Assembly (NCBI GenBank): GCA_963921795.1
Contig: OY997650.1
Coordinates: forward strand, 17,125,862-17,189,861
DNA length: 64,000 bases
Direction: 5' to 3'
Source of the DNA: Nannobrachium achirus
Taxonomy: Eukaryota; Chordata; Actinopteri; Myctophiformes; Myctophidae
Shown: piece after piece, positions 28,545-62,132 of the stretch
Position numbering within the stretch: the stretch's first letter is position 1
Layout of the letters: every line of letters starts with the position of its first letter
Position numbers and translations under genes: made by a program
The notes under the pieces: model-generated
What the model saw: the letters and a program-made list of their open reading frames with translations, nothing else
Databases searched by the model: none
What the model was told of the DNA's origin: nothing

Positions 28545-28601
28545 TTAAAAAATAGCAGATGTACAAGTTCGCTGCGAACTTGTAGATCTGCTATTTTTTA
28601 A
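28545..28601. repeat. Dispersed hairpin element, copy H1
   Basis: 57 bases with 28-bp arms (TTAAAAAATAGCAGATGTAC... and its reverse complement) and one mismatch around a single central base. The inner part is GTTCGC/GCGAAC in place of the commoner GCTCACA. Confidence 0.85.
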
Positions 28602-29129
28602 TAGCCAACGCAAGAATCTACGGATGCTTTCCCGGTTTTAATGGGTTTTAAGAAAGCAAATCCCCTAGCTGCTACCGCATGACAAATTATTTAGGATGGT
28701 CCACTCATGGTACACAGGCTCAAGCATAAACAATTCATTATAGTACTGGGATTAATGAAACAACGTGACTGTAAACAATGGTTGGCTGGATGGTTTATAA
28801 GTATTTGAGAATTCGAGAGTCAATAAGTCTAGAGTTTCAGCTAATGCAGACTGCACTGAAGCAAATGTGTGTAATATCTTCCAGGTACCTCAGTGATGGG
28901 CTTGTTATTGTAAAGAAATATTTACACATTGTACTGTAGACATTCACATTAAGCTGAGAGGAAACAACGGTGCTACTTTTTTATCTTGCTCTGTCAAAGC
29001 CGCCTTTCGTTATTTCCAAAAGGTGTGAATTATGACAGAACTGTGTCATGAAATCAGAACAAAATGTAATGCATGTGGTACTTCACTACTCCGTGCACGG
29101 ATATACCACAGTGAATACATGTATTACAC
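28602..29129. other. Unique sequence, no gene seen
   Basis: No frame, repeat or RNA gene is supported here. Confidence 0.45.
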
Positions 29130-29591
29130 CATACATGGGCAACTGGCCACATGCGGCCCCCACCTTCACTTAATGCGGCTTGCAGGTTAATACCGGAATA
29201 CTGATATATTACTGATTTCAGCTGTTACAATTCCAAACATGACCTGCTTTAATTCCGTCAGTCAATATTAGTAGCTTAATGACTAGTATAGTAGTATTAA
29301 AATGTATTTTTCTTTATGTCCAATTTATTTGTATTTAGGTTCATAAAGTTAACATGACTATATAACTAAATGCATTTGAAATTAGATAAAAATGTTACAT
29401 TTCAGGATAAAGATTATTCAGAATTACAATTCAAAAGAAGCAAAAATAGCCGATCTACGATCTGCTATTTTTGCTTCTTTTGTATGAGATACTAGAATGA
29501 CAAAGTAGGACGTAGCAATATGTAATGTGGCCCTCTGGAGTGAAGGTGGAAATATAGTGACCCTCCCCATCGTCAAAGTTGCCCACCCCTG
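29130..29591. mobile_element. hAT-like element, CAGGGGTGGGCAAC family
   Basis: The right end reads AGTTGCCCACCCCTG and the left end is a diverged CATACATGGGCAAC, an inverted pair. Flanks TATTACAC (29122-29129) and TATTAAAG (29592-29599) agree at 6 of 8 positions. The interior carries hairpin H2 and no transposase. Confidence 0.55.
29432..29482. repeat. Dispersed hairpin element, copy H2, long matched arms
   Basis: The arms start CAAAAGAAGCAAAAATAGC and end GCTATTTTTGCTTCTTTTG. The outer CAAAAGAAGC part is private to this locus. One mismatch over 24 bp and a 3-base loop. Confidence 0.85.
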
Positions 29592-30184
29592 TATTAAAGT
29601 GTGGTGTCTACAAATCACTTTTTTATATTGGACTGTTTAGCAAACAGCTAGCAGCAGCACCTTGCTGTTCAGTTTCGACCTCCCAGGGTCTTCATTAGAG
29701 CGTGACTGAAAACAACCAATCGAACCCCCTTGCTTCCACAGAGATGTTCCTTGAATCGTGAGTCACAGGGGCTGCTAGGAAAGGAAACAAAACCACCCCC
29801 GACTTGACTGACCCGGTGAAAGGAGTCACTCATCTTGAAATAGGCGAGAAAAGAAAGCTTGGATTCCCCATGGGGTGGTCTCACGCTGGGTGGATAAATA
29901 ACAGTCAACACTGTGCTTCCTGTATCCATTCACTGTTATAGGCGCCCCCGACTGGCATGCTGAGGGCAGATTTATTGAGGAAGTGGAACAGGGCTGACAG
30001 GAGTTCAAGGAGGCTTCAAACGCTCAATAGTCACTGTCTTGCAAGGATGACCAGCACAATTCAAACTGCAGAAAAGCTGCTCAGAGTCTGATTCGGTTGC
30101 GGTGAAAGTGGGCCGCAGTGATACGAAGGATGTCGATGCTGACTTCAATTTCCTAAGTGTCAACAATAATGATTTCTCTACCTT
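29592..30184. other. Unique sequence, no gene seen
   Basis: Short overlapping minus-strand frames (29669-30008) show no recognisable domain and no splice or start context. Confidence 0.45.
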
Positions 30185-30186
30185 TA

Positions 30187-30551
30187 GGGATGGGACGATA
30201 TGAAAATTTCATATCACGATTATTGTGACAAAAGAAATCGCGATTTACGATATTATAGCGATAATCAAAACCCATTATCCTGGGGTGGAATGTTTGCCAA
30301 AAAATAGCAGATCTACGTAGAGACATTTGATAGAGTGAAAAAAAGACTGTATCAAGTAGCCTACGTATATTTATATTTTACCAATTAAAGAGGGTTTAAG
30401 TGGTACCGGATATGCAGCTCGGCAAATGAAAGGTGAATTGATCCCAGTGCATGACGGAGGACGATATCACGATAAATTAAATCTCCACGATACGATTATC
30501 GCTAGAGTTTTTTATCACGATAAACGATAATATCGCTTATCGTCCCATCCC
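30187..30551. mobile_element. TA-flanked MITE, GGGATGGGACGAT family, copy 1
   Basis: Inverted ends GGGATGGGACGATA and ATCGTCCCATCCC are flanked by TA on both sides, as expected for Tc1/mariner-like insertions. The interior is rich in GCGATA/CACGAT repeats. It holds half of a hairpin (30296-30320). Confidence 0.7.
30296..30320. repeat. Dispersed hairpin element, copy H3 (left arm only)
   Basis: GCCAAAAAATAGCAGATCTA is present but the right arm is lost. The matching place in the sister MITE (40155) has both arms. Confidence 0.7.
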
Positions 30552-30553
30552 TA

Positions 30554-31199
30554 CTCTCCATACAGATGTTAATGGCAAGGAAGGACACACTGCGACTGAA
30601 AGCACTTCCTGTATCTATTTCAAAGAAATGACCTCCACGCAGCATACGGATACAATGCCTTATTTCAGTGGATGTCAAGATGATGGAACGTCCTTTTTAC
30701 TCCAACTCACAAATGGGAGGAGAGCTCTCCACAATCTACTGTGTGCACGTAGAGTAACGGGCAGTTTCAATTACCATATAGCGTGCTCCATCTGCTCCGC
30801 TGTTAACATTACCTAGCTGCCACTATACAGCACACACCGCAGAGCCTGAGTGCATGCTAATTCAGGTCATTTCAGGGGTTAAGTGGTGCTCACTGAAAAC
30901 CAGTGGAAAGGAGGGAGGAAGGAAGAGTTGGTAGAAAGAAAAGGAAATTCAAGGATTCAAGATGTTATTCGTTCTCATATACACAGTACAAAAGTACACC
31001 AGAGTAAAACTCTTGGGTTTCGGTTCATCAATATTGTAGCAACTCTAACAAAAGAAAGAAGTAAAGACAACAACAACAACAACAAAGTAGTTTGGTAAAG
31101 AAAGGAGTAAAGGTGAAAAGTGCCACAGCAACAAATCATGGCGTCAGCCCCACAGATCTCAAACTGGTACGTATATAAATTCATAAATGAATTGTTCAC
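30554..31199. other. Mostly unique sequence with a short (CAA)n tract
   Basis: A CAACAACAACAAC tract lies at about 31068-31084. No gene is supported. Confidence 0.45.
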
Positions 31200-33139: not shown

Positions 33140-33290
33140 TTGACCACCTAAACCTCAGCGTCTGTATTCTGGGGAAAACTTAGCAGAAAATGGCAGATTT
33201 ACAAGTATGAGCAGCATGTACTGTAGATCTGCCGTTTTCAGCAAAGATATTTGTAATGTAGAGCGAAAATAGAAAAGACACTAGTATAGA
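33140..33290. mobile_element. Diverged fragment of the CAGGGGTCTTCAAC hAT-like family
   Basis: GCGTCTGTATTCTGG...AACTTAGC aligns with GCGTCCATATTCTGAGAACT in the copies at 54918 and 61007. No ends remain. Confidence 0.45.
33183..33242. repeat. Dispersed hairpin element, copy H4 (diverged)
   Basis: GCAGAAAATGGCAGATTTAC pairs imperfectly with GTAGATCTGCCGTTTTCAGC around a loop containing GTATGAGCAGCATG. Confidence 0.7.
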
Positions 33291-34699: not shown

Positions 34700-35020
34700 C
34701 TGTTTTCCTCCACAGCTGTCCAGACCAAAACAGCTGATTACACTCCCACACCAGCCACTTCCGGTCATCGCTACAACTCCCCCTGGTGGTCGGGAGGGTC
34801 TCCTCCTTCTACCAGGTCCAAATCTCAGTCTACAAATTCCACTCTAAATAATATAATTCCTGTTGCTCAACCAATCACTATTTTTAATATAAACACTATA
34901 ATTAGACCTAGAAAACAAAGGCTGCTATCAGCCCCTGGTATCCACTCCAGCTACTCCAATCTCTGCACGCTAAGAAGTGACACCCCACCACCAGAGTCAC
35001 CCATCACTGCACCTGTTGTA

Positions 35021-38176: not shown

Positions 38177-38621
38177 CAGGGGTCTTCAACGTTTTCAGGC
38201 CAAAGACCCCTTAGAGAGAGAGAGATGAAGCAAGGACTCCCATAACTTTTTCATAGATTCCATATAGTTTCATTGTTTGACAACACCATCATCAGTGTAT
38301 TTTGGATTCATGTCAATTTGTGTTTTCAGATATTTAACCACTTGAACCGTCAATAATTAATGAACTTGACCTTTCACTCTGTACTTAGTCTGCTCTTCTT
38401 CCCCTCTACACCAAACCTCTTTGCCGAAAATAGCCGATCTACAATCTGAGCTTGTAGATCTGCTCTTTTTGGCTAAAGTTCTCAGAATATGGACACTAGG
38501 GTTCAAGTGCATGCATATAAAAAAGGAGAAAAGGGTGTCTATCACACAAAGATTTGGAGGACCCCCTGTAGTAACTCTGAGGACCACCCAGGGGTCTCGG
38601 ACCCCCTGTTGAAGACCCCTG
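38177..38621. mobile_element. hAT-like MITE, CAGGGGTCTTCAAC family, copy a
   Basis: Both ends read CAGGGGTCTTCAAC inward. Flanks TTCTAGAA (38169-38176) and CTCTAGAA (38622-38629) match at 7 of 8 and fit the hAT target consensus. There is no transposase. Hairpin H5 lies inside. Confidence 0.8.
38423..38473. repeat. Dispersed hairpin element, copy H5
   Basis: GCCGAAAATAGCCGATCTAC and GTAGATCTGCTCTTTTTGGC pair around a short AATCTGAGCTT centre. It lies inside hAT-like copy a. Confidence 0.8.
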
Positions 38622-39159: not shown

Positions 39160-39691
39160 CAGGGGCGTCAATTGGGTATGGCAGGGGTATGCAGCTGCCA
39201 TACCCTGGGTCCAGGGGGGGAAATAAAAGTTACTTTGTTTTAAATATAAATCCATGAATGTCTCTTTGTCTAGCTGTGCTGGTAATTATGTTGTTAAAAA
39301 CAGTAAAATAACTACAAATACAAAATTTAACAAAATGGTTACGTTAACAAGGTATTATAATTCTCCACACTTTTATTCTCCCCATCTTGACAAAATGGTA
39401 TATTCCCAGGTTCCATAGGTGAGCTGCACAGGTGCAATGCATTATTGTTAATTGTGGCACGTTTACTAACATGCCAAGTTTAGCTGCACTTGAACAACCG
39501 TTCCAGGCTGCCATATCCAGCCCAAGAAACCATAGAAACAAGGGAAAACAATAAAATGTACTTCTTAAAATGAATTCATCATGCCTGTTGGGTATGGCAA
39601 CATGACTGGTGTCTTGCACGCGCGTGAAGGCGAGCGTGCAAGACACCAGTCATGTTGCCATACCTTAGCTTTTTCTGAACTGACGCCACTG
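39160..39691. mobile_element. hAT-like element with CAGGGGCGTCA ends
   Basis: Left end CAGGGGCGTCA and right end TGACGCCACTG. Flanks ACGAGGAC and AAGAAGAC agree at 6 of 8. It carries the strong hairpin at 39591-39664. No transposase frame is seen. Confidence 0.6.
39591..39664. repeat. Perfect 31-bp inverted repeat with 12-base loop
   Basis: Arms 39591-39621 (GGTATGGCAACATGACTGGT...) and 39634-39664 are exact reverse complements. The loop is GCGTGAAGGCGA. An RNA copy would fold like a small-RNA precursor. Confidence 0.95.
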
Positions 39692-39699: not shown

Positions 39700-40043
39700 C
39701 CGAGGTTTAGATTGCTCTGGCATGATTAACCGCGAACAGATGCTTGGTGCTCGGACGGCCTGACTTTGTGTAATTAAAACAGCATCATGTCTAGTTTGGG
39801 ATGACTACAGCCAACAACTAGGTTAAGGTATTCATAGTACAGCTATTTCTATTCATAGTGCAGACACTACTAAAGTGTGGTAGCACCGATTTGCTAATGA
39901 TCAGATAAAATTGGACAAAAGCAAGAACCCTAACATAAAAAAGAAAAAAGAAACAAAAGGTCCTATTACTTAAAAAAGGTTATTGGACCATTATTACTGC
40001 TGGAAAGATGATGAAGTTGCATCTCTAACAATTGCAAAGAAAC
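39700..40043. other. Unique AT-rich sequence, no gene seen
   Basis: No feature is supported. Confidence 0.4.
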
Positions 40044-40045
40044 TA

Positions 40046-40352
40046 GGGATGGGACGATATGAAAATTTCATATCACGATTATTGCGACAAAAGAAATCGC
40101 GACTTACAATATTATTGCGATAATCAAAATCCATTATCCTGGGGCAGAACATTTGCCAAAAAATAGCTGATCTACTTGTAGATCGGCTATTTTTGACAGC
40201 AAAGGCATTTGATAGAGAGTGAAAAAAAGACTGTATTACAGTAAGTACGTACGTATATAAGTACCTTTTAGAATTATAGAGGGTTTAAGTGGTAGCGGAT
40301 ATGCAGTTCTGCAAATAAAAGGTGAACCCAACACCGCTTATCGTCCCATCCC
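40046..40352. mobile_element. TA-flanked MITE, GGGATGGGACGAT family, copy 2
   Basis: Ends GGGATGGGACGAT and CGTCCCATCC with TA on both sides. It aligns with the copy at 30187 but has lost part of its right half. It carries a complete hairpin (H6). Confidence 0.7.
40155..40200. repeat. Dispersed hairpin element, copy H6 (short form)
   Basis: GCCAAAAAATAGCTGATCTA pairs with TAGATCGGCTATTTTTGACA-GC. The AAGCTCACA middle part is missing. Confidence 0.8.
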
Positions 40353-40354
40353 TA

Positions 40355-40899: not shown

Positions 40900-41195
40900 T
40901 CCTATTAAAAACCCATTTAGGCCTAGGATTATTGAATGCTTTAACTATTGAAAAATAGCAGATCTACAAGCTCACAGCCGCGATGTGAGCTTGTAGATCC
41001 GCTATTTTTGAAAAAGTCGTGAAAATGTGTGCAAAACTTTGAATATTATGTATTTTTATAGCGAACGTTTGTAACTCAAATTTTGCCTCTGGGGGGTTCC
41101 TGGAACTAAATATTTTGAGATGGGGGTCCGTGGCCAAATAAATATCATTTTGGGGTCCTTCACATGAAAAGGTTTGCGAACCACTGACATAGTAG
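40900..41195. mobile_element. hAT-like fragment with hairpin H7
   Basis: TGCTTTAACTATTG before the hairpin and GTCGTGAAAATGTGTGCAAA after it match the interiors of the elements at 46313 and 53021. The right part (GGGGTCCTTCACATGAAAAG...CACTGACATAG) matches 53840-53875 and the inverse of 47112-47150. Confidence 0.5.
40951..41009. repeat. Dispersed hairpin element, copy H7
   Basis: Arms AAAAATAGCAGATCTACAAG(CTCACA) and the complement, 26 bp with one mismatch, loop GCCGCGA. Confidence 0.9.
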
Positions 41196-44197: not shown

Positions 44198-46304
44198 TAG
44201 GGTTTTTCCAAAAACCTTCCAAAAGACACTTATAGAATCTCAGGTAAAAATCCAAATTTTCGTGATTTTTCAAAAATAGCAGATCTACAAGCTTGCAGCG
44301 CGGCACTCGGTGCCGCACTGTGAGCTTGTATATCTACTATTTTTCAATAGTTAAAGCATAAAATAATGATACACAATGTGTACCCATTCTAAATGGGTTA
44401 AATATGGAGCCTTGCATCCAAATGAGCGGAGCCTATGTCATTAAAATGAAAGAGAGCATTGAAATAATGTTGTTGGTGTCACCATATGTAGTGTTTCAAG
44501 TTTTCACATCATAAATTGATAGCGCTTGCAATGCTTCGCTACTGTACTGTATATTATACTGTATCTGGTGATACTTCATACAGAGCTCAATCATTCATAC
44601 GCTCAATAATACGCAAATACACATAACTTCAATGCCTGATTATTCTGGTGTCTTATGCCTACAGTATGTGATAATAGTGCTTAATCATTTGAACTGTATC
44701 CTGCCTCAGGTGAACAAATCCCACACTAGCTAGAAACAACGTCTTCTCTTAAATATTAGGCACTTCAGAGAAGTTTCTCTGTATTATATTTAAAACATTG
44801 AATTAGAGCTCAAAAACACCCTTTATTATATTCTGCACAGCTCAAAGGCTTCTACGTTTGATGGATTATAGTGTTACGCAGGTGAATTTCACCTCAGTAA
44901 TTGGAAAAGCTGGCATGAGGCCCAACATACAGAAGAATAACTATATCAGCGCGGATATTGACAAACTGTGTTTTATATGAATAACTTTCATCCAATCAAA
45001 ATAGAATACGACTGGAATATATTAAAGATTTATTTTGTTGATACAAAACAGCTTAACAATTTTGCTGCCATTTTAAACATAGCTGTACTAAGCAGCTGCC
45101 AAATTGTCCTTACCTTTTAACGTGGGCACGCGCACGCATCGTGCACGATCTGTGCGCGACTCATCTAGTAGACGTGTAGACTTGGTGACAGCTTTCGAAT
45201 AAAAAAACCCCCATTGAAATAGACATATCCGTTGCGAGACTGTATCCCTGCTTATCCGCCAGTGTTTACATGAAAAAACATTAGAGACAGTCAGCTGTGC
45301 GCTATGGTAACACGTGGGCACGTTCGCGCACATAACAGACGATATGTGCACGGATCATATGCCAGGCGGGTAGAGGAATCAAACAGCTACCAAATAAAAA
45401 AAAAGTGTGGAAAACAGACCATTCTATGGCCCTGCAGTCAGCTCACTTGTTTACAATGAAAAGCTATGCGAACGGAGCTGCGATTGGACGTCAGACCGGA
45501 TATGGAAACCTAGATCCGGTCCAAACAGGAAATACGACCGGATACAGTTAGGGGGCGGGCCTAAAGTCTCCTAAGCGGCTATATACAGCGACCATACTTT
45601 AAATCGTTTCATAATGATTAAAGCTAATTAAATCTTCAGGCTCCTCTGGCATCGCAGAGAGGTACAGCGGGAAATCTTCGGTTTCGACGGGGATCGCAGG
45701 AAATGAGTTAACAACAACTCACTTTTGTAGTGTCCAAGTTGCAATCTCAGAAACCCCACATTACTGATCTTCTTTTTTGAAGATTCCCATTGAATACAAA
45801 CCAATCTGATCATATATACTGTATGTTTATCAATTATTACACAACACAGTTTCTTTTAGATTTGCTGACAGGATACCATTTCATTAAATAGTATACATGG
45901 CAAGTATGCAGCATGCTTGGTGGGTTTTGCGGGCTGTGGCTCGTGGCATTAACGTTGAATCTGAAGAACAGAGGGCCTTGCAAAAAAGCATACGCAGTGT
46001 CATTTCCGCATCTTTAAGGATGACATCAGGAGAGGTACCACAGGCTTTGTGCATGTGACACCGGATATACATGTGTGACATTAGATCCGGTGAAAATAGG
46101 ATCACGGCAAAGACAGGCCAATAAAAAGAAAAGCTCTTTGCTTTATGGCAAGCGGTTTCTCCCACATGACTGTTGAATATTTCATGGCAGTAGTAAGCCA
46201 TGATAGGCTGTGTAGTTGAAGACATACTACTGGAAAACACTGGGGGGTCTCTGAAGACTGCGCTTCACATCACTCCCTGTAAACCCAAGACAATTTTGCT
46301 GGTG
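44198..46304. other. Mixed sequence: hairpin H8 with hAT-like flanks, then unique sequence
   Basis: From 44205 to about 44400 the sequence resembles the interior of the 46313/53021 family. The rest, including CpG-rich patches at 45120-45170 and 45470-45580 (ATCCGGTC repeats), shows no supported gene. Minus-strand frames at 45088-45351 and 45884-46240 have no recognisable domain. Confidence 0.45.
44272..44344. repeat. Dispersed hairpin element, copy H8 (long form)
   Basis: AAAAATAGCAGATCTACAAG...GCGCGGCAC, centre TCG, then GTGCCGC...GAGCTTGTATATCTACTATT. The GGCAC/GTGCC part marks the long 73-bp form. Confidence 0.9.
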
Positions 46305-46384
46305 ACCACCACCAGGGGTGCCGCACCACATTCTGGGCCCTGGGTACAAGGATTCACTTCAATTATTTGGTGCTTTAACTATTG

Positions 46385-46455
46385 AAAAATAGCAGATATA
46401 CAAGCTCACAGCGCGGCACCGAGTGCCGCACTGCGAGCTTGTAGATCTGCTATCT
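46385..46455. repeat. Dispersed hairpin element, copy H9 (long form)
   Basis: Long form with GCGCGGCACCGAGTGCCGC at its centre. It lies in hAT-like element 46313-47449. Confidence 0.9.
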
Positions 46456-46483
46456 ATACTATAATTTTGCGAATGTCTGTCTG

Positions 46484-46520
46484 TCTGAGTGAGTGAGTGA
46501 GTGAGTGAGTGTCTGTCTGT
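46484..46520 (+). repeat. (GAGT)n microsatellite
   Basis: About seven GAGT repeats flanked by GTCTGTCTGTCTG on both sides. Confidence 0.85.
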
Positions 46521-46737
46521 CTGAAACAGCGTTTCTCCTCAGTGGCTGGAGCAATTGATCTGAAATCGCATCACCATAAGCATATGAACACACCTGACAT
46601 AACTGTGAAGCCCGTTTGTCACTTTCACAAATCGTATGCTGTATATTAGCATTTTTATGCTGTATCTACTATCTATTCTGCATCTAGCATGAGGCGCATC
46701 TATTCTGCATCTAGCTTGAGGCAAAATGCTTAACCAG

Positions 46738-46740
<3 letters not shown>

Positions 46741-46785
<45 letters not shown>

Positions 46786-46844
46786 GCAGGCGGGTGTGTG
46801 TGCAGGCGGGTGGGCGGGCGGGCTGGGGGGGGGGGGGGGGGGGG
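46741..46844 (+). repeat. (TG)n tract, GGCGG-rich linker and poly(G)
   Basis: (TG)n to 46782, then GCAGGCGGGTG-type repeats, then a run of 20 G at 46825-46844. Confidence 0.9.
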
Positions 46845-47285
46845 ACAGTATCTCTGTAGCCATTAAACGAAACGGGTTTCTTACATTGATGCTCCTACAT
46901 CATGCAAGCACCAGTTAAAGTTACTTTCCATCCCTCATATACTGTGTGCACAGTGTACATCCCATAACCCACACACTGCACATCATTTTGGAGCTCATAT
47001 CTTTGAACGGGTAAGAGCTAGTTTTTTTTAAATCTTGAAAATGTGTTTAAGTCTTTGAATATTTCAAATCCTTCTACGTTTCTTTTTTTTTGAAAAACCT
47101 ATGTTTCTATGTCAGTGGTGCTCAAACTTTGTCAAGGACCCCCAAAATTATATGTATTTGGCCACAGATCCCCATCTCAAAATATTTAGTTCCAGGGACT
47201 CCCCAGAAGCAAAATTTGAGTTACAAATGTTCGCTTAAAAAAGACATAACATTCAAAGATTTGCACAAATTTTCACGACTTTTTC

Positions 47286-47358
47286 AAAAATAGCAGATCC
47301 ACAAGCTTGCAGCGCGGCACTTGGTGCTGCTCTGTGAGCTTGTAGATCTGCTATTTTT
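47286..47358. repeat. Dispersed hairpin element, copy H10 (long form)
   Basis: AAAAATAGCAGATCCACAAG...GCGCGGCACTTGGTGCTGC...TTGTAGATCTGCTATTTTT. Second hairpin of hAT-like element 46313-47449. Confidence 0.9.
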
Positions 47359-47753
47359 TAATAGCTAAAGTATATAAAATAATTAAGGGCCCTCCACCTT
47401 GGGCCCTAGTAACTCAGTCCCACTCCTCCCCTCCCTTGTGACGCCCCTGACCACCACCACCACCATTCATTTTCACGAGGACTCTGGGCCAACGCACTGC
47501 TCGTGAACCACTATCCTGAGGCCTGGCTCTTCTTTGATCTCTATTGATGAGATTCTCATTTCAGTGGTGGAAAAATTACTCAAATGTTTTACGTTGTATG
47601 TTTTAAGTATCAATATAGAAATACTGTCACAAGTAAAAAAAATTACTTGAGTAAAAGTACAAAAGTATTGGTATCAACATGTACTTAAAGAAGTACCAAA
47701 AGTAAAAGTACTCGTTATGCAGAATTTCAAGTTTTCAAACGTATTAAAAATAT

Positions 47754-47809
47754 TTTGAAAATAGCAGATCTACAGCCGATCTACAGCTTGTAGATTGGCT
47801 CATTTCAAA
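47754..47809. repeat. Dispersed hairpin element, copy H11
   Basis: TTTGAAAATAGCAGATCTAC and GTAGATTGGCTCATTTCAAA pair. The outer TTTGAAA/TTTCAAA part is matched. Confidence 0.75.
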
Positions 47810-48116: not shown

Positions 48117-48429
48117 AAGTAACTACGTTTTGTAGTGGAGTAGAAGTAGAAGTATTGGTAAATTGGAAATACTCAAGTAAAGTACAAATAACTCAAAAAA
48201 ACTATACTTAAGTACAGTACTCAAGTAAATGTTCTTAGTTACTTTACACCACTGCTTGAGCCTGGCTCTTCTTTGATCTCTATTGATGAGACTCTCGCTA
48301 CAAGATAGGTGGCAGTGGGGGGGGGGGGGCTCACATGTTCTTCTGAACTTGTGATTAGCACCAGAGGGAGGATGCTCTGCACGTGCCTGACACTGCTCCG
48401 AACCGGCAGAAGATGCAGTGGCTCTAGTC

Positions 48430-48690: not shown

Positions 48691-50054
48691 TTCTGGAGCT
48701 AACTAACCAGTCTCCAGTAAGGCGACATCTCACAATAAGGATTTAAAGCAGTTACGTAAACAAACGATTATGCAGCCGTCATATTCAGCCTCAAAGGCTC
48801 GAGCGGTCTTCGGATTGCTCCATGTACATTTAAACACTGAGATTTGCATGTCAATAACACGCTCCAGAGATATAATGTGACAAATAAAAAGTGCAAAAAT
48901 TGCTGATCTACAAGCTCATAATGCATTGCACGGCTACAAATTGTGAACTTGTAGATCTGCTCTTTCTGCAATCTTTGGAGAATCTTTGAATTGGGATGCT
49001 AGTCTAGGTTGATAGTGGTTAAAAAACGTGCCAACGTGTTTACTTAATTGAAGCCAGGACTTAGGGCGATGTTAGTTCACAATGAAGACTAACTTTGTAA
49101 TCCTACTGTGGAATCCAGGATGAACAGCTTCTTGACATAAGCAAGAACACATTGATTGCATTGATAGTCAAGGGAAAAGGAGATAAAAGTGTACACAAGA
49201 ACTGAACTGACTTGGTGTAGGGTTTATCGAGTTTAAACAGCGGATCAAAAGAGACCCCTGGGTTTTTAGAACATTTGTGGATATGGCAAAATGTGGGATC
49301 TAGGGTGCACAGTATGTACGGTACAGTAGAGGCTCTGAACGTCTAACGCAGCTTAATTGAACGCTCACTAAATAGAAGCTCCCATGAATACTCATGAGCG
49401 CTACAGGGCCCTTCATCTTCTGCATGCAAGGATAGGCATATAGGGGGGCCCACGGCCCAAGTGCGGCACACAGGGAGACAATGGACTCTATACACAGCAA
49501 CCATACTGGAAAGAAATTGGGAGAATTACTAATGAAGGCTCTGTTCCGTTCTTGTCTTGTGAGTCAGGGTGCTGATATTCTGCATGTTGGCTCAGTTGAT
49601 GTGCTTTGGCACGCAAAATACAATAATCTAAAGCGTCAATTTAATACTATGCATTGCTCAAAGCACAACACAAGGACATTAGCATGAGTGACTTTTGGAT
49701 CAACACTAATTGATTTGATTGGTGATTGAACCTCCATGTATGTTTGTTCATTTGTAAATCTTATTGTGGTATAATAATTAATTACAACAATAACACTAAT
49801 AAATCAAACTTAAAGTGCTTTTTCTTTTTTTGCATTTGAAGATAGTGTGGGTGTTTTTTTTTTCTTTTTCAGTGTGTTGGACCCTCGTTTAGTCGTCTCC
49901 TACGCATCTGTCGCCTTTGTGGGTGTGCTAGAGACTTGGTTTTTATACTAAAAGTGCAAATGGTTTAATTAAACAGAACAAATAGATCAAATGAGAGAAC
50001 AGAAACAATGGTGGAATTCCTCTGTCGATCTCTATCAGTTTTCCTGTCTGTCTC
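48691..50054. other. Mostly unique sequence with hairpin H12
   Basis: No gene is supported. Short frames at 48768-48971, 49300-49500 and 49481-49687 have no recognisable domain. Confidence 0.45.
48892..48970. repeat. Dispersed hairpin element, copy H12
   Basis: GCAAAAATTGCTGATCTACA... pairs with ...TGTAGATCTGCTCTTTCTGC. The centre ATAATGCATTGCACGGCTAC is unlike other copies. No flanking transposon was recognised. Confidence 0.75.
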
Positions 50055-50150
50055 TCTTAACCCATTCAGAACGGGTACACATTATTGCGTATCATTATTT
50101 TATGCTTTAACTATTGCGAGCTTGTAGATCTGCTATAAATTGAAAAATGT
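50055..50150. repeat. Half hairpin H13 with family flank
   Basis: TTATGCTTTAACTATTG then GCGAGCTTGTAGATCTGCTA (50116-50135). Only the right arm is present. The AACCCATT...GGGTACACATTAT flank matches the inverse of 44375-44400. Confidence 0.65.
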
Positions 50151-51045: not shown

Positions 51046-51394
51046 CAGGGGTCTTCAACAGGGGTTCCGGGACCCCTAGGGGGTCCTCAGAGTTACTACA
51101 GGGGGGCTCTCAACGCCTCGCAGCGCGAGGCGTTGAGAGCTTGTAGATCGTCTATTTTTGGCAAATAGGTTGGGTGTGGAGGTAGAAAAAAAGAGGACAG
51201 AGTGAAAGGTCAAGTTAACTAAAAACAAAAATCCAACATAGACTGATGACAGCGCTGTCAAACATGTCTATGAATCTCTATCGATGAATATCTGCATCAC
51301 GCATTTATGCAATACCGGTATGTAGTGGGGGTCCCTGCTTCATCTCTCTCTCTCAACTAAGGGGTCCTTGGCCTGAAAACGTTGAAGACCCCTG
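51046..51394. mobile_element. hAT-like MITE, CAGGGGTCTTCAAC family, copy c
   Basis: Both inverted ends are intact. Flanks TTTCACAC (51038-51045) and TTTTACAC (51395-51402) match at 7 of 8. It is opposite in orientation to copy a. Confidence 0.8.
51106..51162. repeat. Hairpin H14: right arm of dispersed element plus a new palindrome
   Basis: GCTCTCAACGCCTCGC and GCGAGGCGTTGAGAGC (51106-51140) form a perfect 16-bp inverted repeat, followed by TTGTAGATCGTCTATTTTTGGC. The left AAATAGCAGATCTAC arm is gone. Confidence 0.75.
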
Positions 51395-53012: not shown

Positions 53013-53115
53013 TTGCTACTCAGGGGCGTCACAAGGGTGGGAAAAGTGGGATTGGGCCCTAGTAACTAGGGCCCAAGGTGGAGGGGGCCTTAATTATTTT
53101 ATACTTTAGCTATTG

Positions 53116-53188
53116 AAAAATAGCAGATATACAAGTTCACAGCATGGGACAGAGTGCCACACTGCAAGCTTGTAGATCTGCCATTTTT
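53116..53188. repeat. Dispersed hairpin element, copy H15 (long form, diverged)
   Basis: AAAAATAGCAGATATACAAG... pairs with ...GCTTGTAGATCTGCCATTTT. The centre GGGACAGAGTGCC has decayed pairing. Confidence 0.85.
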
Positions 53189-53232
53189 GAAAAGTCGTGA
53201 AAATGTGTGCAAATCTTCGAATATATGTACTT

Positions 53233-53740
53233 TTAAAGCCATACTGTGTAAGTTGCCCAACTAGTGGTCATTAGCCCTATAGCAAACCGCGGTCGCGTCC
53301 GCGTCTTTCGTCCGTTTTTCGTACCTTCAGACCCCCGCGTCTGCCTCCACCTCGCTGAGATCTATCTTTTAAGGGGTCCCTTGTTCCTGTGCGTTCAGTA
53401 ATTCCAGAGATACGGACTCCTTCACCCTGCCTGGTAGGCGAAATTACCTAGAGAAGGGATGGTACAAACGGGCGACAACAAATATGGCTGCCATAGCGAC
53501 CCCACTTCAAGATGCGCTGTGATTGGCCGGCAGTTGTATAACCCTCGCTGTGATTGGCCGGTAGTGTGATGACGCAATTTTGGCGCGAGATCCGGTCCAC
53601 GGCAAGGATCTCAGTTTACATATAGAGAAGGCTTTACAGGCTGAAATTCACGGCGCGGATCTTCTAAAACTTTTGTGATTTAATAGTTAGGAGAATTTTA
53701 AGATTTGTTTTATAAAAAAAGTTACATAGTACAACTTTAA
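53233..53740. mobile_element. TTAA-flanked MITE nested in the hAT-like element
   Basis: Inverted ends TTAAAGCCATACTGTGTAAG and TTACATAGTACAACTTTAA with TTAA at both extremes, as for piggyBac-type insertions. The interior is CpG-rich. No transposase. Confidence 0.55.
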
Positions 53741-53941
53741 GTGAACATTTGTAACTAAAATCTTGCTTCTGGGGGGTCCCTGAACTCAATATTTTGAGAT
53801 GGGGGTCGGCGGCCAAATACATATCATTTTGGGGGTCCTTCACATGAAAAGGTTTGAGCACTACTGACATAGAAACATACTTTTTCTCAAAAACATTAGA
53901 AGGATTTGAAATAGACTTGCACACATTTTCACTATTTTCCC

Positions 53942-53997
53942 AAAATAGCAGATCTACAAGCTCACAGCGCGGCTGTGAGCTTGTATATCAGCTATTC
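53942..53997. repeat. Dispersed hairpin element, copy H16
   Basis: AAAATAGCAGATCTACAAGC...GCGCGGC centre...GTGAGCTTGTATATCAGC. Second hairpin of the 53021-54121 element. Confidence 0.85.
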
Positions 53998-54516
53998 TTC
54001 AATAGTTAAAGCACAAAATAATGCATAATAATGCATTCCCAGTTCCCCCTATGAAGAACATTCATGGGGGGCCTGCAGTGATCCTTGTACCCAGGGACCA
54101 GAATTTGGCGCGACACCCCTGTTGCTAGTACATCTGTGTCCCTGCATACCCCTTTCTCCCACTGGATCCACACAACCACAGGGCCTTGACACGTTCTGGT
54201 AGCGAAATGGATCTTGCTCCAGGGTTAAAGTGCCACATTAACCTTTCGACAGGCCACAGAGTGATGCATCAGGGAGCTATATTGAGTGGAGCGGGGCAGA
54301 GGTGGTGGGAGGAAAGGGTTTCGGAAGAGTGACGGGAGGAAGTGGATGAAGCATGCCGTGGTAAACTGCTTGTGGTGGAAAGGCACTTACGTAAGTAACT
54401 AGGGCATTCACCAAATATTCAAATATCAAAGTCACAATTCGACGTTGTTCACCGAAGTCGAATATTCCCTTATTTGCATTTTTTTATTGTTTTCTCTTTA
54501 AAAATGCTCTATACCA

Positions 54517-54634
54517 GGGGTTCTCAAAACCTTTTAGGCCGTGACCCCCAAAATAAACATATTTGAACTGGGGACCCCCACCTTGACAAGCACTTCGAAT
54601 TGCAGGTATTACATTTAATGTGACTCGGTTCCGC
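54517..54634. mobile_element. Nested hAT-like end, CAGGGGTTCTCAAA family
   Basis: Starts CAGGGGTTCTCAAAACCTTT. Its interior ATTTGAACTGGGGACCCCC also occurs at the end of every array unit (for example 3240-3262). The right end is not found. Confidence 0.55.
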
Positions 54635-54702
54635 AGGCGAACATTGTGAAAATAGCAGATCTATGTGAGCATGTAGATCGTCTATTTTCACAATGTTCGC
54701 CT
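54635..54702. repeat. Dispersed hairpin element, copy H17, long locus-specific arms
   Basis: Arms AGGCGAACATTGTGAAAATA(G) and CTATTTTCACAATGTTCGCC(T) are perfect inverted copies, continuing inward with two mismatches. The AGGCGAACATTGTG part occurs in no other copy. Confidence 0.9.
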
Positions 54703-54852
54703 CTTGCTTACTTAATATTTGACAGTTTGGCCAGTCCTGTCGAATATTCGACTATTCGAATACTTTGAGGTTGAATAATTCAAATACTAAAAATCACTAT
54801 TCGTGAATGCCCTGTAAGTAACCACACAAGCCCATTTCAGAAATAGTGAATG

Positions 54853-54900
54853 TAGCCGATCTAACTAAGGTCACGACGATGTTGTGCTTGTAGATCAGCT
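54853..54900. repeat. Dispersed hairpin element, copy H18 (diverged)
   Basis: TAGCCGATCTAACTAAGG... pairs weakly with ...GTGCTTGTAGATCAGCT. Just right of the 54400-54814 element. Confidence 0.55.
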
Positions 54901-54917
54901 GTTTATGCTGTTTAAAG

Positions 54918-55323
54918 CAAGGGTATTCAACAGGGGGTCCGGGACCCCTAGGGGGTCCTCAGAGTTACTACAGGGGGTCCTCCAAATCTTTGAGTGATTT
55001 TTTTATATTAACCACTTGAATCCTAGCGTCCATATTCTGAGAACTTTAGCCAAAAATAGCAGATCTACAAGCTCACAACGCCTCAAGGACGTTTGGTGTA
55101 GCGGGGAAAAAGAGCAGACTAAGTACGGAGTGAAGGGTCAAGTTCATTAAGTATTGATGGTTCAAGTGGTTAAATATCTGAAAATACAAATTTAAATGAT
55201 TCCAAAATACACTGATGATTGTGCTGTCAAAAGATGGAATATATTAACAGGTTGTGGGAGTCCCTGCTTCATCTCTCTATATCAACTAAGGGATCCTTGG
55301 CTTGAAAACGTTGAAGGACCCTG
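54918..55323. mobile_element. hAT-like MITE, CAGGGGTCTTCAAC family, copy d
   Basis: Diverged left end CAAGGGTATTCAACAGGGG and right end CGTTGAAGGACCCTG. Flanks GTTTAAAG and GTTTACGC agree at 5 of 8. Contains half hairpin H19. Confidence 0.65.
55050..55088. repeat. Dispersed hairpin element, copy H19 (left arm only)
   Basis: CCAAAAATAGCAGATCTACA then AGCTCACAACGCCTCAAG. The right arm is deleted and the hAT-like body resumes with GTTTGGTGTAG. Confidence 0.8.
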
Positions 55324-55732
55324 GTTTACGCTGTTAAAAAGAAATATTCTGAAAACTTTCGCCTATAATGACATGGCCAAAAAAGCCAGGACGCGAGGTT
55401 GAAAGTTGTTAGAAGCAGATACATAATCAAATGTGGTTCTGTGTGATACCAACATTTTGAAGACGTATTTTAAGAGTGAGGAAATGGATGCAGTGGCCTA
55501 GTTATCTCTCCTCAGTAGCTCTGTTTTGGGGCAACGGTAGGACACTTTGTGTTCTGGCCCAGATACACCTGACTTCTATTAGCCCTCGCAAGTATTTAGG
55601 ACAAGCCCTCCTGTTGTATATCGTCACTGTCAGGCAGAAACCTTGTATCTCCATATTCCAACTTTTAATGTTTTTTTTTTATATTGATGCCCTACTTCAT
55701 TGAGCAAGAGTGCAGAGCAAAAGTAGTGGAAA
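55324..55732. other. Unique sequence, no gene seen
   Basis: The 75-codon frame at 55476 has no recognisable domain. Confidence 0.4.
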
Positions 55733-55810
55733 CAGCCGATCTATAAGCAATTAAGCATACAATGTGTTGTGACTCGTGATGCAATGCTTTGTGAGCTTGT
55801 AGATCAGCCA
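55733..55810. repeat. Dispersed hairpin element, copy H20 (diverged, enlarged centre)
   Basis: CAGCCGATCTATAAGCAA at the left and GTGAGCTTGTAGATCAGCC at the right, with a 40-base centre containing GCATACAATG and its near complement. Confidence 0.6.
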
Positions 55811-57982
55811 CATTTTAGCCATTTTAGAAAAAAGAGAAAGTGGTTAAGTGTGTCCGTCTATGAGTTTTCTAAATACTGAATCCAGCAAGCAGGGTCAGGT
55901 ACTGGACCAATCAGTGACGTCTCGATTGGGGCCAGATCAAGTCAAACCATGACTAGTCAGATCTGGCCTAGAATATCACCTGATTTCAACAAACATAAAT
56001 CCTGCCCACGGAAACGGACGCCCTGGATTAATCAGAGAGGGTCCGATCGAGGCCAGATAAATATCACAACTAGGCAGATATGTCCCAGAATATAACCTTG
56101 CATGCTCATATTTCAACTAACATTACAAACAATAACAATAGTTCTATAGTCCATATGACGTTCTGGTAATGACGTCAAGATCATCCCCATATGGGCTGTG
56201 ATCTGGCCAAGTTCTGAACGTCACCGGAGTCACCGGAGGATGTTATCATGACGTCATTTGGCTTGCAGGGAACCAATGGAAAGTATTAACAAGACTCAAG
56301 CTTGTGACTAAATACATAACTACATCCATTGGAACACAGACTCTTTTTCGTATTTCCTGAAAAGTTACAGTTTTGGACATAAAAGTTCACTGCCCGACAG
56401 CAACATCATATGGGTTTGCTTTTCGCCATGTACTTTAATTTAGCCCGACTGAAAACGCCAACATGATTACTAGCTTCTGCCTGCCAGTCTTGACCTTTAA
56501 TCAAAACAACTGAAACCTTTGGCCACCTGCACGATGCCGCTGTCATTTTACACCCCTATGATCCGAGTAGTGAAGGTGGTTGATGGTTTGCTGTGCGCTC
56601 CCTGGGGGAACAATGGGCAGCTGGAAAGGTGGAGCCACTGTCAGCTTTGATGGTGTCACAGATCATATCAGAGGCCATTCAGTGAGTATTTCAAGAATGA
56701 GAGTCTGCGTGCGTGCGCGTGTCCGGGCAGTCGGGCACGTGCCACCGCAGCAAGTGTGACAAGCCTTCCGGCACCACAAATGAGCTCAGTTGTACCAGAG
56801 CGGTTGCGTGGTGGCGGGTGGTATATGATATTCAGACATCAAAGGGCCAGGCCAAATGACGCCCATCCTGTCCTGGTGTGGTGAACAAAGTCACCTTCCT
56901 TTGACCTAATTCTTAGAGATACTAATAGCCTCTAGACAATATTCAATCTTGGGCAGGCCATAAAAAGTGAATTCACATCATGACATTTAGTTGGCAAACC
57001 TTTAAACCTTCCGTTGTGTCACGACTTATCTCGGATTAAAGACCATTATAGTAAACTAATAATAATGGGATTTTATCAACTACTTTAAATAGCCTATTAA
57101 GTATAGTATAAAAGGGCAACTCATATATGTAGTTGTCACATACCCAACCTTCATTTTCCATGGGTGATTGGAATGAAACCGAGAGAGTGATAAAGCTTGT
57201 GCTGATTGGATAGCTGTGGTCCCTGGGGATTACACTGCAACTGACCAATCAGCATAAATAAATTGCCACCGCGGGCTGAACTGCCAACACGAGTGACCTT
57301 AATGCTTAAGGATCTCATCATGTCAAACCGTAAACACAGTTGCAGGCAACTCTCCCCAACACTGTAGGAAAATCCCAGGGGGACTTAGAATAATAGACTG
57401 TAGTGTACCATTCCTTAGTAGTTCCTTGTTGAGAGTAATGCTTATCACAAAGTGTTGATAAAATGCTGTGAATAAATATGAAAAAAAGGCTAGGACTTAA
57501 AATATCTTGGTGCCTGCCCTGGAGACTGGACTCCTAAAAAAGGATAGATATGTGGGTTTGTGTGGGTTTGTGTGAAAATGCCTTAAGGCGTCCAATTCAT
57601 CTCAATACGACTTAAAGAAATATTGTCTTGAGACTTCTGAGACTTCCGGGAGAGACAGACAGAGACAAAGAGAGGGACAGAGACGATACAAAAAGAGAGG
57701 AGCAGAGAGATCTTTCATCCCCAACAGAAAACCTTCCCTGTCATACATAGCAGCAGCATTGATGATGAACCTTCACTCCAGAAGGATAAGGTCATGTCTC
57801 AGGTCTTCCTCCATGAACAGTAAGAGGAGCCACTTCCACCTGCGTTATAGTGAAATACAACTGCATTCTGACAAGTGTCACCCTGCCTGCGTTCGATTGG
57901 CTGAAAGCAGCCCAACCCACTAGTCTCTTTGAGCAGCAGTACAACAATATTTACTATTCTGCCCCCCTGGTTTACAACTTCT
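55811..57982. other. Unique sequence, no gene seen
   Basis: Contains a diverged tandem pair (55910-55992 and 56029-56118, both with GGCCAGAT...CAGAATAT-like text) and a block at 56272-56400 related to 50250-50370. Purine-rich GAGAGACAGACAGAGAC lies near 57651. Small frames lack support. Confidence 0.45.
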
Positions 57983-59605: not shown

Positions 59606-59715
59606 TCCATGTGCCCACCTCTCCATTTGCCCACATGTCCCTAGTGCCCAGATGCCTACCTCTCCAAGTGGGCACATGTCCCTCATGCCCAGTTGTCCAG
59701 GTGCCCATCTGTTTT
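59606..59715 (+). repeat. GTGCCCA-type minisatellite, locus 1
   Basis: Irregular repeats of about 17-19 bases built on GTGCCCA(C/G)(C/A)TCTCCA/GTCC. A related block lies at 62982-63116. Confidence 0.7.
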
Positions 59716-59888
59716 ATAGACCCACATTTGTATATCTATCCATCTAATAGACCCACGTTTGTCTATAAAAATGGAGGTTATATAACATGGACGGGTGCTT
59801 TACAAGAATGCTTTTCTGAACATACAGTATATGTTTCCAGGAGCGATTTAAAGGATGGGTAGGGGCAGGCTAAGGGATATGCAATTAT

Positions 59889-60430
<542 letters not shown>

Positions 60431-60456
60431 TATATAGAATATATATATATATATTA

Positions 60457-60880
60457 GGGATGGTCCGATCAGGTTTTTTGGAACCGATCACCGAGCACCG
60501 ATCACAAAAGTTTGATCACCCGATACCGATCAATCACCGATCCAATCAAGTTATTATTTATATATTATTTATATTTTCTAAATGTTAATGTTTTAACATT
60601 AATTAATTAATTCACTCACATTCACATTTATATATTTGCCTTATAGTTATTTACCAGCATTACTATGTATTTATTATCATAGCAGTAACTAATTATTCCT
60701 TCAGCACTGTGGAAATCAATACCCCAAAATGGCCTCAAGTGGGCATACTGAACGGCTGGTTGATCGGATGCACCGATCATCGGATCGGTGAATTTACCTT
60801 TTGATCTAAACCACCGATTATCGCCGATCACGCTTTGATCGGCCCGATCCGATCCATTGCCGATTGATCGGTAACATCTC
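60457..60880. mobile_element. TA-flanked MITE with CCGATCA-rich ends
   Basis: Left end GGGATGGTCCGATCAGG and right end TTGATCGGTAACATCTC are imperfect inverted repeats flanked by TA, inside (AT)n tracts. The interior is dense in CCGATCA/TGATCGG. Confidence 0.65.
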
Positions 60881-61006
60881 TAATATATATATATATATAT
60901 ATATACACACGATATGTATACTATACACACAAACACATACTAATCCTATGTCAAGGAGAAAGTTTACCGCGCTGCCAAAACACAAATTAAAATCATACTT
61001 CTACTA

Positions 61007-61427
61007 CAGGGGTCTTCAACAGGGGGCCCAGGACCCCTAGGGGGTCCTTAGAGTTACTACAGGGGGTCCTCCAAATGTTTGTGTGATAGAAACTTTTTTT
61101 CTTTTTCTATATTAAACACTTGAACCCAGTGTCTATATTCTGAGAACTTAAGCCAAAAATAGCAGATCTACAAGCTCACAAGCTTGTAAATCCGCTATTT
61201 TCGGCAAAGAGGTTTTGTGTAGATGGGAAAAAGAGCAGAGTGATAGGTCAAGTTTATTAAGTATGACGGTTCAAGTGGTTACATATCTGGAAACACAATT
61301 TTAAATGAACCCAAAATACACTGTTGATTGTGCTGTCACTATATTGTATCTATGGGTTGTGGGGGGTCCCTGCTTCATCTCTCTCTCGATTAAGGGGTCC
61401 TTGGCCTGAAAACGTTGAAGACCCCTG
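61007..61427. mobile_element. hAT-like MITE, CAGGGGTCTTCAAC family, copy e
   Basis: Intact inverted ends. Flanks TTCTACTA (60999-61006) and TTCTACTG (61428-61435) match at 7 of 8. Carries complete hairpin H21. Confidence 0.85.
61152..61205. repeat. Dispersed hairpin element, copy H21
   Basis: GCCAAAAATAGCAGATCTAC(AAGCT) and (AGCTT)GTAAATCCGCTATTTTCGGC with a CACA-type centre. Confidence 0.9.
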
Positions 61428-61435
61428 TTCTACTG

Positions 61436-61792
61436 AGAGTGCAGTGTTTGATTTACTGCATGCGTCTGTTATGAAACCAAAACGATGAATTGTACAGTAA
61501 GGGTTTGTACGTGGCAGACAGTGAAGCACAGTGTGTTCCGATCCCTGAGAGAGTGGAGGATCATGAGATATACTGCCACACAAAAACCCAAAAGAGAGCA
61601 GGTGTGAGAGCATGCCCACTGGGTTTATGACAACCTTCTGGGCCCACATCAATTGCATTCCATGTGTCCTAATCCTTTCCTCCCAGCAAGGGGCAGCGCA
61701 CTAGGCTTGGGCAGCACCTTCTTTTTCATACCTTCCTGACATTTCACCCAGACAGGCTATACGTGTGACGGTATCTGTATCTTTGTAAAAAT
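61436..61792. other. Unique sequence, no gene seen
   Basis: A 102-codon minus-strand frame (61350-61658) overlaps the MITE end and has no recognisable domain. Confidence 0.4.
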
Positions 61793-62132
61793 CAGTGGTG
61801 GAAGAAGTACTTGAGTAAAGTAGTAGTACCATAATGTAGAAATATTCTGAGTTTCATGAGTAAAAGTCCTGTATTCAATATTTTACTTGAGTAAAAGTAC
61901 AATGTCCAATTTCAGAACTGAACTTTTTTCAAAAATAGCACATCTACAAGCTTACGTTTCGAGCCTGTAGATCTGCCGTTTTTACAAATAACTTGTTGTA
62001 ACTTACGTTTTCAAATAATGGTAGTGGAGTAAAAAGTACAATATTTGAGATGTAATGGAGTAGAAGTATTGAAAAATGGAAATACTCAAGTAAAAGTACC
62101 TCAAATTTTTAGTTAGTTACTGTTCACAACTG
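61793..62132. mobile_element. MITE of the CAGTGGTG family, copy 2
   Basis: Ends CAGTGGTGGAAGAAGTACTT and GTTACTGTTCACAACTG with ACTTGAGTAAAAGTAC text inside. Flanks GTAAAAAT and ATGAAAAT agree at 6 of 8. Carries hairpin H22. Confidence 0.7.
61931..61983. repeat. Dispersed hairpin element, copy H22
   Basis: AAAAATAGCACATCTACAAG(CTTA) pairs with CCTGTAGATCTGCCGTTTTT. Both CAGTGGTG copies carry a hairpin at a similar inner position. Confidence 0.85.

What the first reader, a model, noticed from the sequence alone, without database searches (positions are those of the whole stretch)
28545..61983. A dispersed hairpin family spread over several unrelated transposons
About twenty copies of a 45-80 bp inverted repeat with core AAATAGCAGATCTACAAGCT (and its complement) occur in 33 kb. 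They lie in CAGGGGTCTTCAAC hAT-like MITEs (38423, 51106, 55050, 61152), the CAGGGGCGTC family (46385, 47286, 53116, 53942), TA-flanked MITEs (30296, 40155), CAGTGGTG MITEs (47754, 61931), another hAT-like element (29432), and places with no element I recognise (28545, 48892, 55733). None lies in the array at 1-27182. A module shared among unrelated MITEs is unusual. It could be a mobile hairpin, a sequence exchanged by recombination, or a source of small RNAs. I do not recognise it as a named family.
Basis: partly seen in the sequence, partly recalled or inferred. Interest (0 to 1): 0.75.

Follow-up and report, generated by a model that had tools for sequence, protein, structure and literature searches.

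The report
Hugely abundant shared hairpin in fish transposons
A short, near-perfect DNA palindrome sits inside many otherwise unrelated small transposons of what looks like a fish genome, apparently in hundreds of thousands of copies; its middle is nearly the same everywhere while the DNA on either side differs, as if it moves or is captured as a unit.

Summary
The 20-nt core occurs 33 times (≤3 mismatches) in the window, none in 100 shuffles, and 153,323 times exactly in the 1.66-Gb genome, control 0. The common full unit is a 69-bp near-palindrome. In the window, 16 of 22 sites fall into two flank lineages: b (8) and g1 (8), the latter a TTAA-bounded MITE nested in hAT MITEs. Genome-wide the module is not one ancestral family: 133 distinct hairpins gave 23 flank clusters, and 17 representatives have background flank identity (0.27) while their 20-nt arms match at 16.4 of 20 between families. 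The core ends sharply. Just outside it, families carry their own inverted 7-9 bp (72/119 matches against 38.3 when arms are re-paired), some strongly, some hardly. Core arms are no more alike within a copy than between copies, so pairing is not maintained. Best reading: a non-autonomous palindromic mini-element that entered many MITEs and was multiplied with them, formally like coral CMITEs (interior conserved, ends variable). Transposase, target-site duplication and pre-insertion site were not found.

The parts
28545..28601 (.). hairpin copy, lineage b on one flank, inside a TTAA-ended element about 28464-28651
   Evidence: (right flank 0/500 shuffles; left flank 40/500)
29429..29485 (.). hairpin copy, flank family e (hAT-like host ending about 29590, by eye); outer 12 nt of the arms match 12/12
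30300..30316 (+). left half of a hairpin (other arm lost), d host, lineage g1
   Evidence: host 92% identical to the one at 40040; flank match itself weak (7/300)
   Evidence: both flanks align to g1 arms, 0/300 shuffles each
38420..38476 (.). hairpin copy inside g1 MITE 38334-38509
40156..40200 (.). hairpin copy in d host, lineage g1
   Evidence: long arm 0/300; short arm 1/300
40948..41012 (.). hairpin copy, lineage b (left end of a composite, TTAA at 40905)
44269..44345 (.). hairpin copy, lineage b (right end, TTAA at 44398-44401)
46382..46457 (.). hairpin copy, lineage b, in hAT host 46313-47449
47283..47361 (.). hairpin copy, lineage b, same host
47757..47806 (.). hairpin copy, flank family c; TTAA at 47744 and 47839
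   Evidence: weak match to g1 short arm (3/300)
48886..48976 (.). hairpin copy, g1-like on one flank, TTAA about 48830 and 49019
   Evidence: (right flank 0/300, left flank no match)
50119..50138 (-). right half of a hairpin, lineage b, TTAACCC at 50057
51106..51158 (-). right arm plus centre, left arm missing, g1 in hAT host 51046-51394
53113..53191 (.). hairpin copy, lineage b, in hAT host 53021-54121
53938..54002 (.). hairpin copy, lineage b, same host
54635..54702 (.). hairpin copy, flank family g, outer arms 15/15 inverted match, in hAT host 54400-54814
54858..54907 (.). decayed hairpin copy, unassigned
55049..55080 (+). left half of a hairpin in g1 MITE 55008-55173 (TTAA at both ends)
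55728..55815 (.). hairpin copy, one flank of family h, the other ending in AGTGGTTAA
61150..61205 (.). hairpin copy in g1 MITE 61112-61282 (TTAA at one end, TTAC at the other) inside hAT host 61007-61427
61925..61985 (.). hairpin copy, family c, in hAT host 61793-62132 (6/8 duplication)
38177..38621 (.). hAT MITE CAGGGGTCTTCAAC carrying g1; duplication 7/8
46313..47449 (.). hAT element CAGGGGYG carrying two lineage-b hairpins; duplication ACCACCAC 8/8
40044..40354 (.). hAT element TAGGGATGGGACG carrying g1; duplication AAAGAAAC 8/8
54400..54814 (.). hAT element TAGGGCATTCAC carrying family g; duplication TAAGTAAC 8/8

Best explanation
The hairpin is a non-autonomous palindromic mini-element. 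Two conserved arms of about 21 bp (AAATAGCNGATCTACAAGCTC) lie in inverted orientation around a variable centre; the commonest core is 69 bp, and most flank families add their own short inverted tips. It entered a number of unrelated sequences, among them hAT MITEs and a TTAA-bounded MITE (g1), whose own transposition then multiplied it to an estimated order of 300,000 copies. Shown: the sequence, its abundance, the sharp outer border, unrelated flanks, family-specific inverted tips, nesting in hAT hosts, and copies of host families that lack all or part of it. Inferred: that it moves as a unit by transposition, that the inverted tips are its terminal repeats, that hairpin-less copies are later losses, and which enzyme moves it (unknown).
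For: Abundance: 153,323 exact 20-mers, control 0; 42 paired hairpins in 200 kb fetched at one fixed position on each of C1-C20. Unrelated flanks: 133 distinct hairpins in 23 flank clusters; 17 hand-picked representatives have flank identity 0.268 while core arms match 16.4/20 between families. Sharp border: majority base 0.85-1.0 at 21 of 22 core positions (0.68 at position 7), 0.91 at -1, 0.68 at -2, at most 0.56 from -3 outward. Family-specific inverted tips: outward 3-9, 72/119 matches against 38.3 after re-pairing, reached in 0 of 20,000 permutations. Hosts with their own duplications: of 11 tested, 8/8 in three, 7/8 in four, 6/8 in one, 2-3/8 in three. Within g1 family a the core changes like the rest (core 84/90, flanks 345/363, p 0.6), but between g1 families it is more alike than the flanks (83/90 against 264/346, p 0.0006); the second test used the six arms of 33188, 40161, 30302 and 48897 that align with g1 and left out 48897L, which does not.
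Against: No target-site duplication: the longest direct repeats near the core are no longer than in re-paired arms (3.8 against 3.7, 18 representatives), and TA on both sides at the same place occurs in 4 of 18 (L052, L084, L031, L039). No pre-insertion site: of 41 reported matches to an i-family joined site, 4 span it without a full hairpin, with four different junctions; the other 37 match one flank only, and the 6 of them that I read hold the hairpin. One h-family copy lacks the hairpin but keeps tip bases, another keeps half of it. The two large lineages have fixed flanks, so most copies reflect host amplification, not independent insertions. Inverted tips are uneven: three of 17 representatives (L126, L049_2501, L043_2799) match at 2 of 9 and m at 4 of 9; 8 of 18 have an uninterrupted run of 0-2.
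Confidence: 0.5

Rival explanations
1. The palindrome is a cis-acting transposase site of a TTAA (piggyBac-like) MITE superfamily, kept because elements without it do not move; it often lies 25-67 bp from a TTAACC-type end, as palindromic repeats lie near piggyBac ends.
For: TTAA-bounded elements at 55008-55173 and about 48830-49022. Outward GGTTAA in 7 of 39 window flanks against 1.44 expected; in the larger set one of three such motifs in 43 of 266 flanks against 9.5 expected from the 200 kb, 33 of the 43 at 25-67 nt, in g1 (14 of 27 copies), the b/i/o cluster (16 of 57), c (3 of 9) and five singles. piggyBac ends carry 19-bp palindromes, bound by cysteine-rich domains (PMC11707139, passages read); coral CMITEs share a conserved 75-bp interior with variable TIRs (PMC2872659: abstract, passages and section 15 read).
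Against: Clusters e (8 copies), k (7), j (3), h (3), m, p and q (2 each) have no such motif within 90 nt, although 55730, placed in h by one flank, has it on the other. The terminal CC[C/T]T motif is not met (CCAC, CCCA, CCCG). I made no search for a transposase.
Confidence: 0.2
2. The element inserts into the centre of pre-existing short palindromes (hairpin loops), so the family-specific inverted arms are target DNA, as with a single-strand (REPIN/HUH-like) mechanism.
For: Inverted arms abut the core, differ between families and fade after about 9-15 bp; no direct target duplication.
Against: No pre-insertion palindrome was found; similar tips recur in different flank families (TCACTA in h and o; TCACAA in j, g and one arm of t), which suggests they belong to the element; some families have hardly any inverted tip.
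Confidence: 0.13
3. Filler capture: when MITEs were born by abortive gap repair, the abundant hairpin was joined in between the two ends.
For: The module is internal in the hAT hosts; no duplications at its borders. That MITE interiors are often filler is recalled.
Against: Needs the same borders again and again and does not explain family-specific inverted tips.
Confidence: 0.12
4. One ancestral family whose flanks merely diverged.
For: In the window 16 of 22 sites reduce to lineages b and g1.
Against: Flanks at background identity between 17 representatives while core arms keep 16.4/20; within g1 family a the core is not slower than its flanks.
Confidence: 0.04
5. A small-RNA or structured-RNA gene family kept for its hairpin.
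For: Strong predicted folds, -18.8 to -50.5 kcal/mol for the 18 window hairpins.
Against: No clear covariation; arms not more alike within than between copies; no Rfam match at gathering score.
Confidence: 0.03

Closest known systems
Coral CMITEs (Acropora; PMC2872659)
   Same: Tiny MITEs whose interior (75 bp there, 69 bp here) is more conserved between families than the ends; TTAA duplications there and TTAA-bounded carriers here; nesting that makes new elements.
   Different: Here the interior is a near-perfect palindrome, carriers are hAT as well as TTAA elements, and the copy number is far larger; no TTAA duplication flanks the core itself.
Bacterial REPINs (PMC3116915, abstract read)
   Same: Inverted doublets of a conserved motif with intervening spacer, predicted to form hairpins, dispersed as a unit.
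   Different: Bacterial, linked to RAYT transposases; no such enzyme was looked for here; many copies here lie inside other transposons.
piggyBac / piggyBat transposon ends (PMC11707139, passages read)
   Same: Palindromic sites near transposon ends recognised by transposase.
   Different: Those are 19 bp or imperfect; here two 21-bp arms with a centre, also outside TTAA elements; terminal CC[C/T]T not met.
Teleost Angel elements (recalled only)
   Same: High-copy fold-back MITEs in fish.

Membership tests
piggyBac/TTAA MITE (the g1 carrier) | TTAA at both ends | tested here: met
   Both ends at 55008-55173 and about 48830-49022; 61112 TTAA with TTAC at the other end; 38334 TTAA with the other end decayed; in the d host and at 33188 the ends are degenerate. 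Three of 27 g1-cluster copies show the end motif on both sides within 90 nt, 14 on at least one.
piggyBac/TTAA MITE (the g1 carrier) | terminal CC[C/T]T motif | tested here: not met
   ends read CCAC (g1) and CCCA or CCCG (b, 28545); motif as given in PMC2872659
piggyBac/TTAA MITE (the g1 carrier) | empty site with a single TTAA | not tested
   the genome search for it was sent three times and not answered; a redesigned query did not complete either
hAT (the outer hosts) | 8-bp target duplication with CAG/TAG-type ends (recalled as hAT hallmarks) | tested here: met
   8/8 in 3, 7/8 in 4, 6/8 in 1 and 2-3/8 in 3 of 11 hosts
CMITE-like MITE (the hairpin itself) | interior more conserved between families than the ends | tested here: met
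CMITE-like MITE (the hairpin itself) | target-site duplication flanking the unit | tested here: not met
   no direct repeat above re-paired controls; TA/TA in 4 of 18 representatives
REPIN | associated RAYT transposase | not tested
   no search for an HUH/RAYT gene was made
structured RNA | compensatory base changes | tested here: not met
   paired cells 191/500, pairs changed on both sides 128/500, covariation score 53/500 shuffles as high

The most novel reading that the evidence does not exclude
A vertebrate palindromic element that spreads as a folded hairpin and inserts at, or copies, short inverted repeats, so that insertions are framed by their own inverted tips rather than by a target duplication: a nuclear analogue of REPINs that uses other transposons as vehicles.
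Probability: 0.13. Interest if true: 0.85.

Novelty: new variant of a known kind. Interest (0 to 1): 0.6.

Why it matters
If true, a 70-bp DNA module makes up about 1-2% of a 1.66-Gb genome (rough extrapolation from 42 hairpins per 200 kb) by riding unrelated transposons. It would make directly testable why some MITEs keep their interior and change their ends, a question left open for coral CMITEs (PMC2872659), and whether an internal palindrome helps elements amplify. It also warns that repeat annotation by internal similarity could merge unrelated families.

Tried and rejected
One ancestral family: rejected for the whole set, true for parts. Arm correction within copies (template switching): not supported for the core, arms as different within as between copies; it stays possible for the outer tips. 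RNA gene: not supported. Direct target duplication of the hairpin: none above controls in 18 representatives; in the first 65 hairpins a 5-nt direct repeat at the core edge (9 copies against 1.5 expected) and TA on both sides (4 copies at one offset) were seen, the former as I read it TTCAA of lineage b, so these rest on few families. Relatives in other collections: 19 viral-collection contigs with one 16-mer each, unpaired, no chance control made; 0 for paired-arm patterns in viral and prokaryote-genome collections. Literature: seven searches; two 14-letter pieces of the core occur in no held paper. Repeat libraries such as Repbase or Dfam could not be consulted, so the repeat may already bear a name there. 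Chance: excluded.
Full report
CHECK. The core AAATAGCAGATCTACAAGCT occurs 33 times in the window with up to 3 mismatches, 0 in 100 shuffles; three of these lie in the array. Between 28545 and 61983 I count 22 sites, 18 with both arms in inverted orientation (54858 with a poor left arm) and 4 with one arm.

SCALE. The genome search answered two requests. One search places the window at C13:17125862-17189861 of a 1,658,514,493-base genome and counts 76,592 + 76,731 exact core matches against 0 for the reversed control. In twenty 10-kb stretches (one per contig C1-C20, all at 5.0 Mb, so systematic rather than random) I found 42 paired hairpins and 26 further single arms with at most 3 mismatches. 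Scaled up this is of the order of 350,000 hairpins; it is rough, as arms with up to 4 mismatches varied from 0 to 18 per stretch. That the host is a fish is my inference from repeat types, from no call.

ANATOMY. The commonest core is 69 bp (62 of 133 distinct hairpins have exactly this length). Two arms of about 21 bp are well conserved; the centre differs between lineages and is often shorter. The outer border is sharp: in 17 flank-family representatives the majority base is at 0.85-1.0 for 21 of 22 core positions (0.68 at position 7), 0.91 just outside, 0.68 next, and at most 0.56 beyond.

FLANKS IN THE WINDOW. Lineage g1: the flanks, hairpin excluded, of 33188 (both sides 0/300 shuffles), 40161 (0/300 and 1/300) and 48897 (one side 0/300, the other not) align with arms that I made from the CAGGGGTCTTCAAC copies 38428, 55054 and 61157 (51139 also matches); 30302 matches weakly (7/300) but shares the d host. 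They sit in a MITE with ends TTAACCACTTGAACC, for example 55008-55173 with TTAA at both ends. Lineage b: 40953, 44274, 46387, 47288, 50119, 53118, 53943 and, on one flank, 28545. So 16 of 22 sites are two lineages. The other six are family c (47759, 61933), e (29444), g (54650), h (55730) and one unassigned (54886). Weak matches to g1 of 61933L (2/300) and 47759R (3/300) were not counted.

FLANKS IN THE GENOME. With 80 short loci around listed core matches of C1 and the earlier loci I had 141 hairpins, 133 distinct with 90-nt flanks. Single-linkage clustering at score 36 (shuffled flanks: 99.97th percentile 34.8, but one of 3,000 reached 60) gave 23 flank clusters, sizes 57, 27, 9, 8, 7, 3, 3, 2, 2, 2 and 13 singles. 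The largest joins b with i, o and others, as I think by low-complexity links, and some singles look like diverged members of larger families (33188, 48897, 28550, L033_5019), so I speak of about 15-18 families and chose 17 or 18 representatives by hand. The C1 loci were picked by an exact core match, which favours well-kept cores; 15 of the first 60 showed no second arm within reach and gave no pair. Between representatives the flanks are at background (0.268, ungapped), the core arms at 16.4/20.

TIPS. Outward positions 3-9 match between the two arms of one family in 72 of 119 cases against 38.3 (sd 5.5) when arms are re-paired across families; positions 10-15 in 37/102 against 26.8 (p 0.026); 16-60 at background. 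Uninterrupted inverted runs from the core edge are 15 (g), 10 (h), 7 (i, k), 6 (o, j), 5 (g1, e, c), 3 (v), and 0-2 in the other 8 of 18. In the first 65 hairpins, not weighted by family, positions 2-5 and 7-8 match far above re-paired arms and position 6 does not. Inside the core the arms of one copy are no more alike than arms of different copies (window: permutation p 0.84; 126 copies: 17.58 against 17.52 of 20), and paired cells do not exceed shuffles. The core is thus kept as sequence, not as a pair.

HOSTS AND NESTING. Of 11 hAT-type hosts tested in the window, three have 8/8, four 7/8, one 6/8 and three (a48, c47, d30) 2-3/8 matching duplications. The TTAA MITE lies inside hAT hosts, and the five a-host copies of the window keep at least part of it, so I take it that host and passenger multiplied together. 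Within family a, core and flanks diverged alike (84/90 against 345/363); between g1 families the core is more alike than the flanks (83/90 against 264/346 aligned positions, gaps not counted, Fisher p 0.0006; 48897L left out because it does not align).

EMPTY SITES. In the loci held, one copy of family h lacks the hairpin (L042:8332-8440), leaving tip bases between two TA, and one (L038:6083-6217) keeps half of it. For family i, 41 matches were reported for a joined single-TA query (40 of 114 first-look candidates scored). Four span the site (L048-L051): two keep part of the hairpin or of a tip, two keep a single TA with small extra letters; the other 37 match one flank only, and the 6 that I read hold the hairpin. 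By eye the flanks of the four look as young as those of filled copies, so I read them as losses, but precise loss and the original state cannot be told apart for two of them. No clear pre-insertion site was found; the queries for the h host, the a host and a TAGTGA pattern did not complete.

MECHANISM. Because flanks are unrelated while the core is shared with exact borders, the core must have been joined to many sequences: by transposition (preferred), by insertion into small palindromes, or as filler at the birth of MITEs. The inverted tips speak for terminal repeats of the unit or for palindromic targets. TTAACC-type ends lie near the core more often than expected (43 of 266 flanks against 9.5), mostly at 25-67 nt (33 of 43), in g1, b, c and five singles; together with piggyBac biology (PMC11707139, passages read) this makes a transposase-site role possible for those families. 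Clusters e, k, j, h, m, p and q have none within 90 nt.

COMPARISON. The best formal match is the coral CMITE group (PMC2872659: abstract, passages and section 15 read), where a 75-bp interior is more conserved than the TIRs and the reason is unknown. REPINs (PMC3116915, abstract read) are similar in build. I found no report of this repeat in seven literature searches; repeat libraries could not be consulted.

Noticed in passing
34700-37801 (+): A 1033-residue open frame with reverse transcriptase (RVT_1, 1e-34) and endonuclease domains: a LINE with an uninterrupted frame.
   Followed up: partly
10414-10473, 11130-11190, 15199-15258, 16030-16090, 20075-20134, 20790-20850, 25440-25500: Diverged core half-sites repeated with the array units; possibly an old hairpin relic.
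   Followed up: partly
47519-47560 and 48256-48300: A direct repeat of about 40 bp borders the c-type hAT element instead of an 8-bp duplication (seen by eye; 2/8).
   Followed up: no
41289-44199: An element of about 2.9 kb with TACACTCTAA ends lies inside the lineage-b composite between the hairpins at 40953 and 44274 (by eye).
   Followed up: no
53241-53739: Another TTAA-bordered insertion (AGCCATACTGTGTAAGTT ends) splits the b copy at 53118 (by eye).
   Followed up: no
39591-39664: A separate fold-back with 34-nt arms, 97% complementary, without the core, in a CAGGGGCGTC-type stretch (by eye).
   Followed up: no
L037:6942 and L037:9513: Two hairpins of family j in mirror orientation 2.5 kb apart with matching flanks, suggesting an element with long inverted ends.
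   Followed up: no
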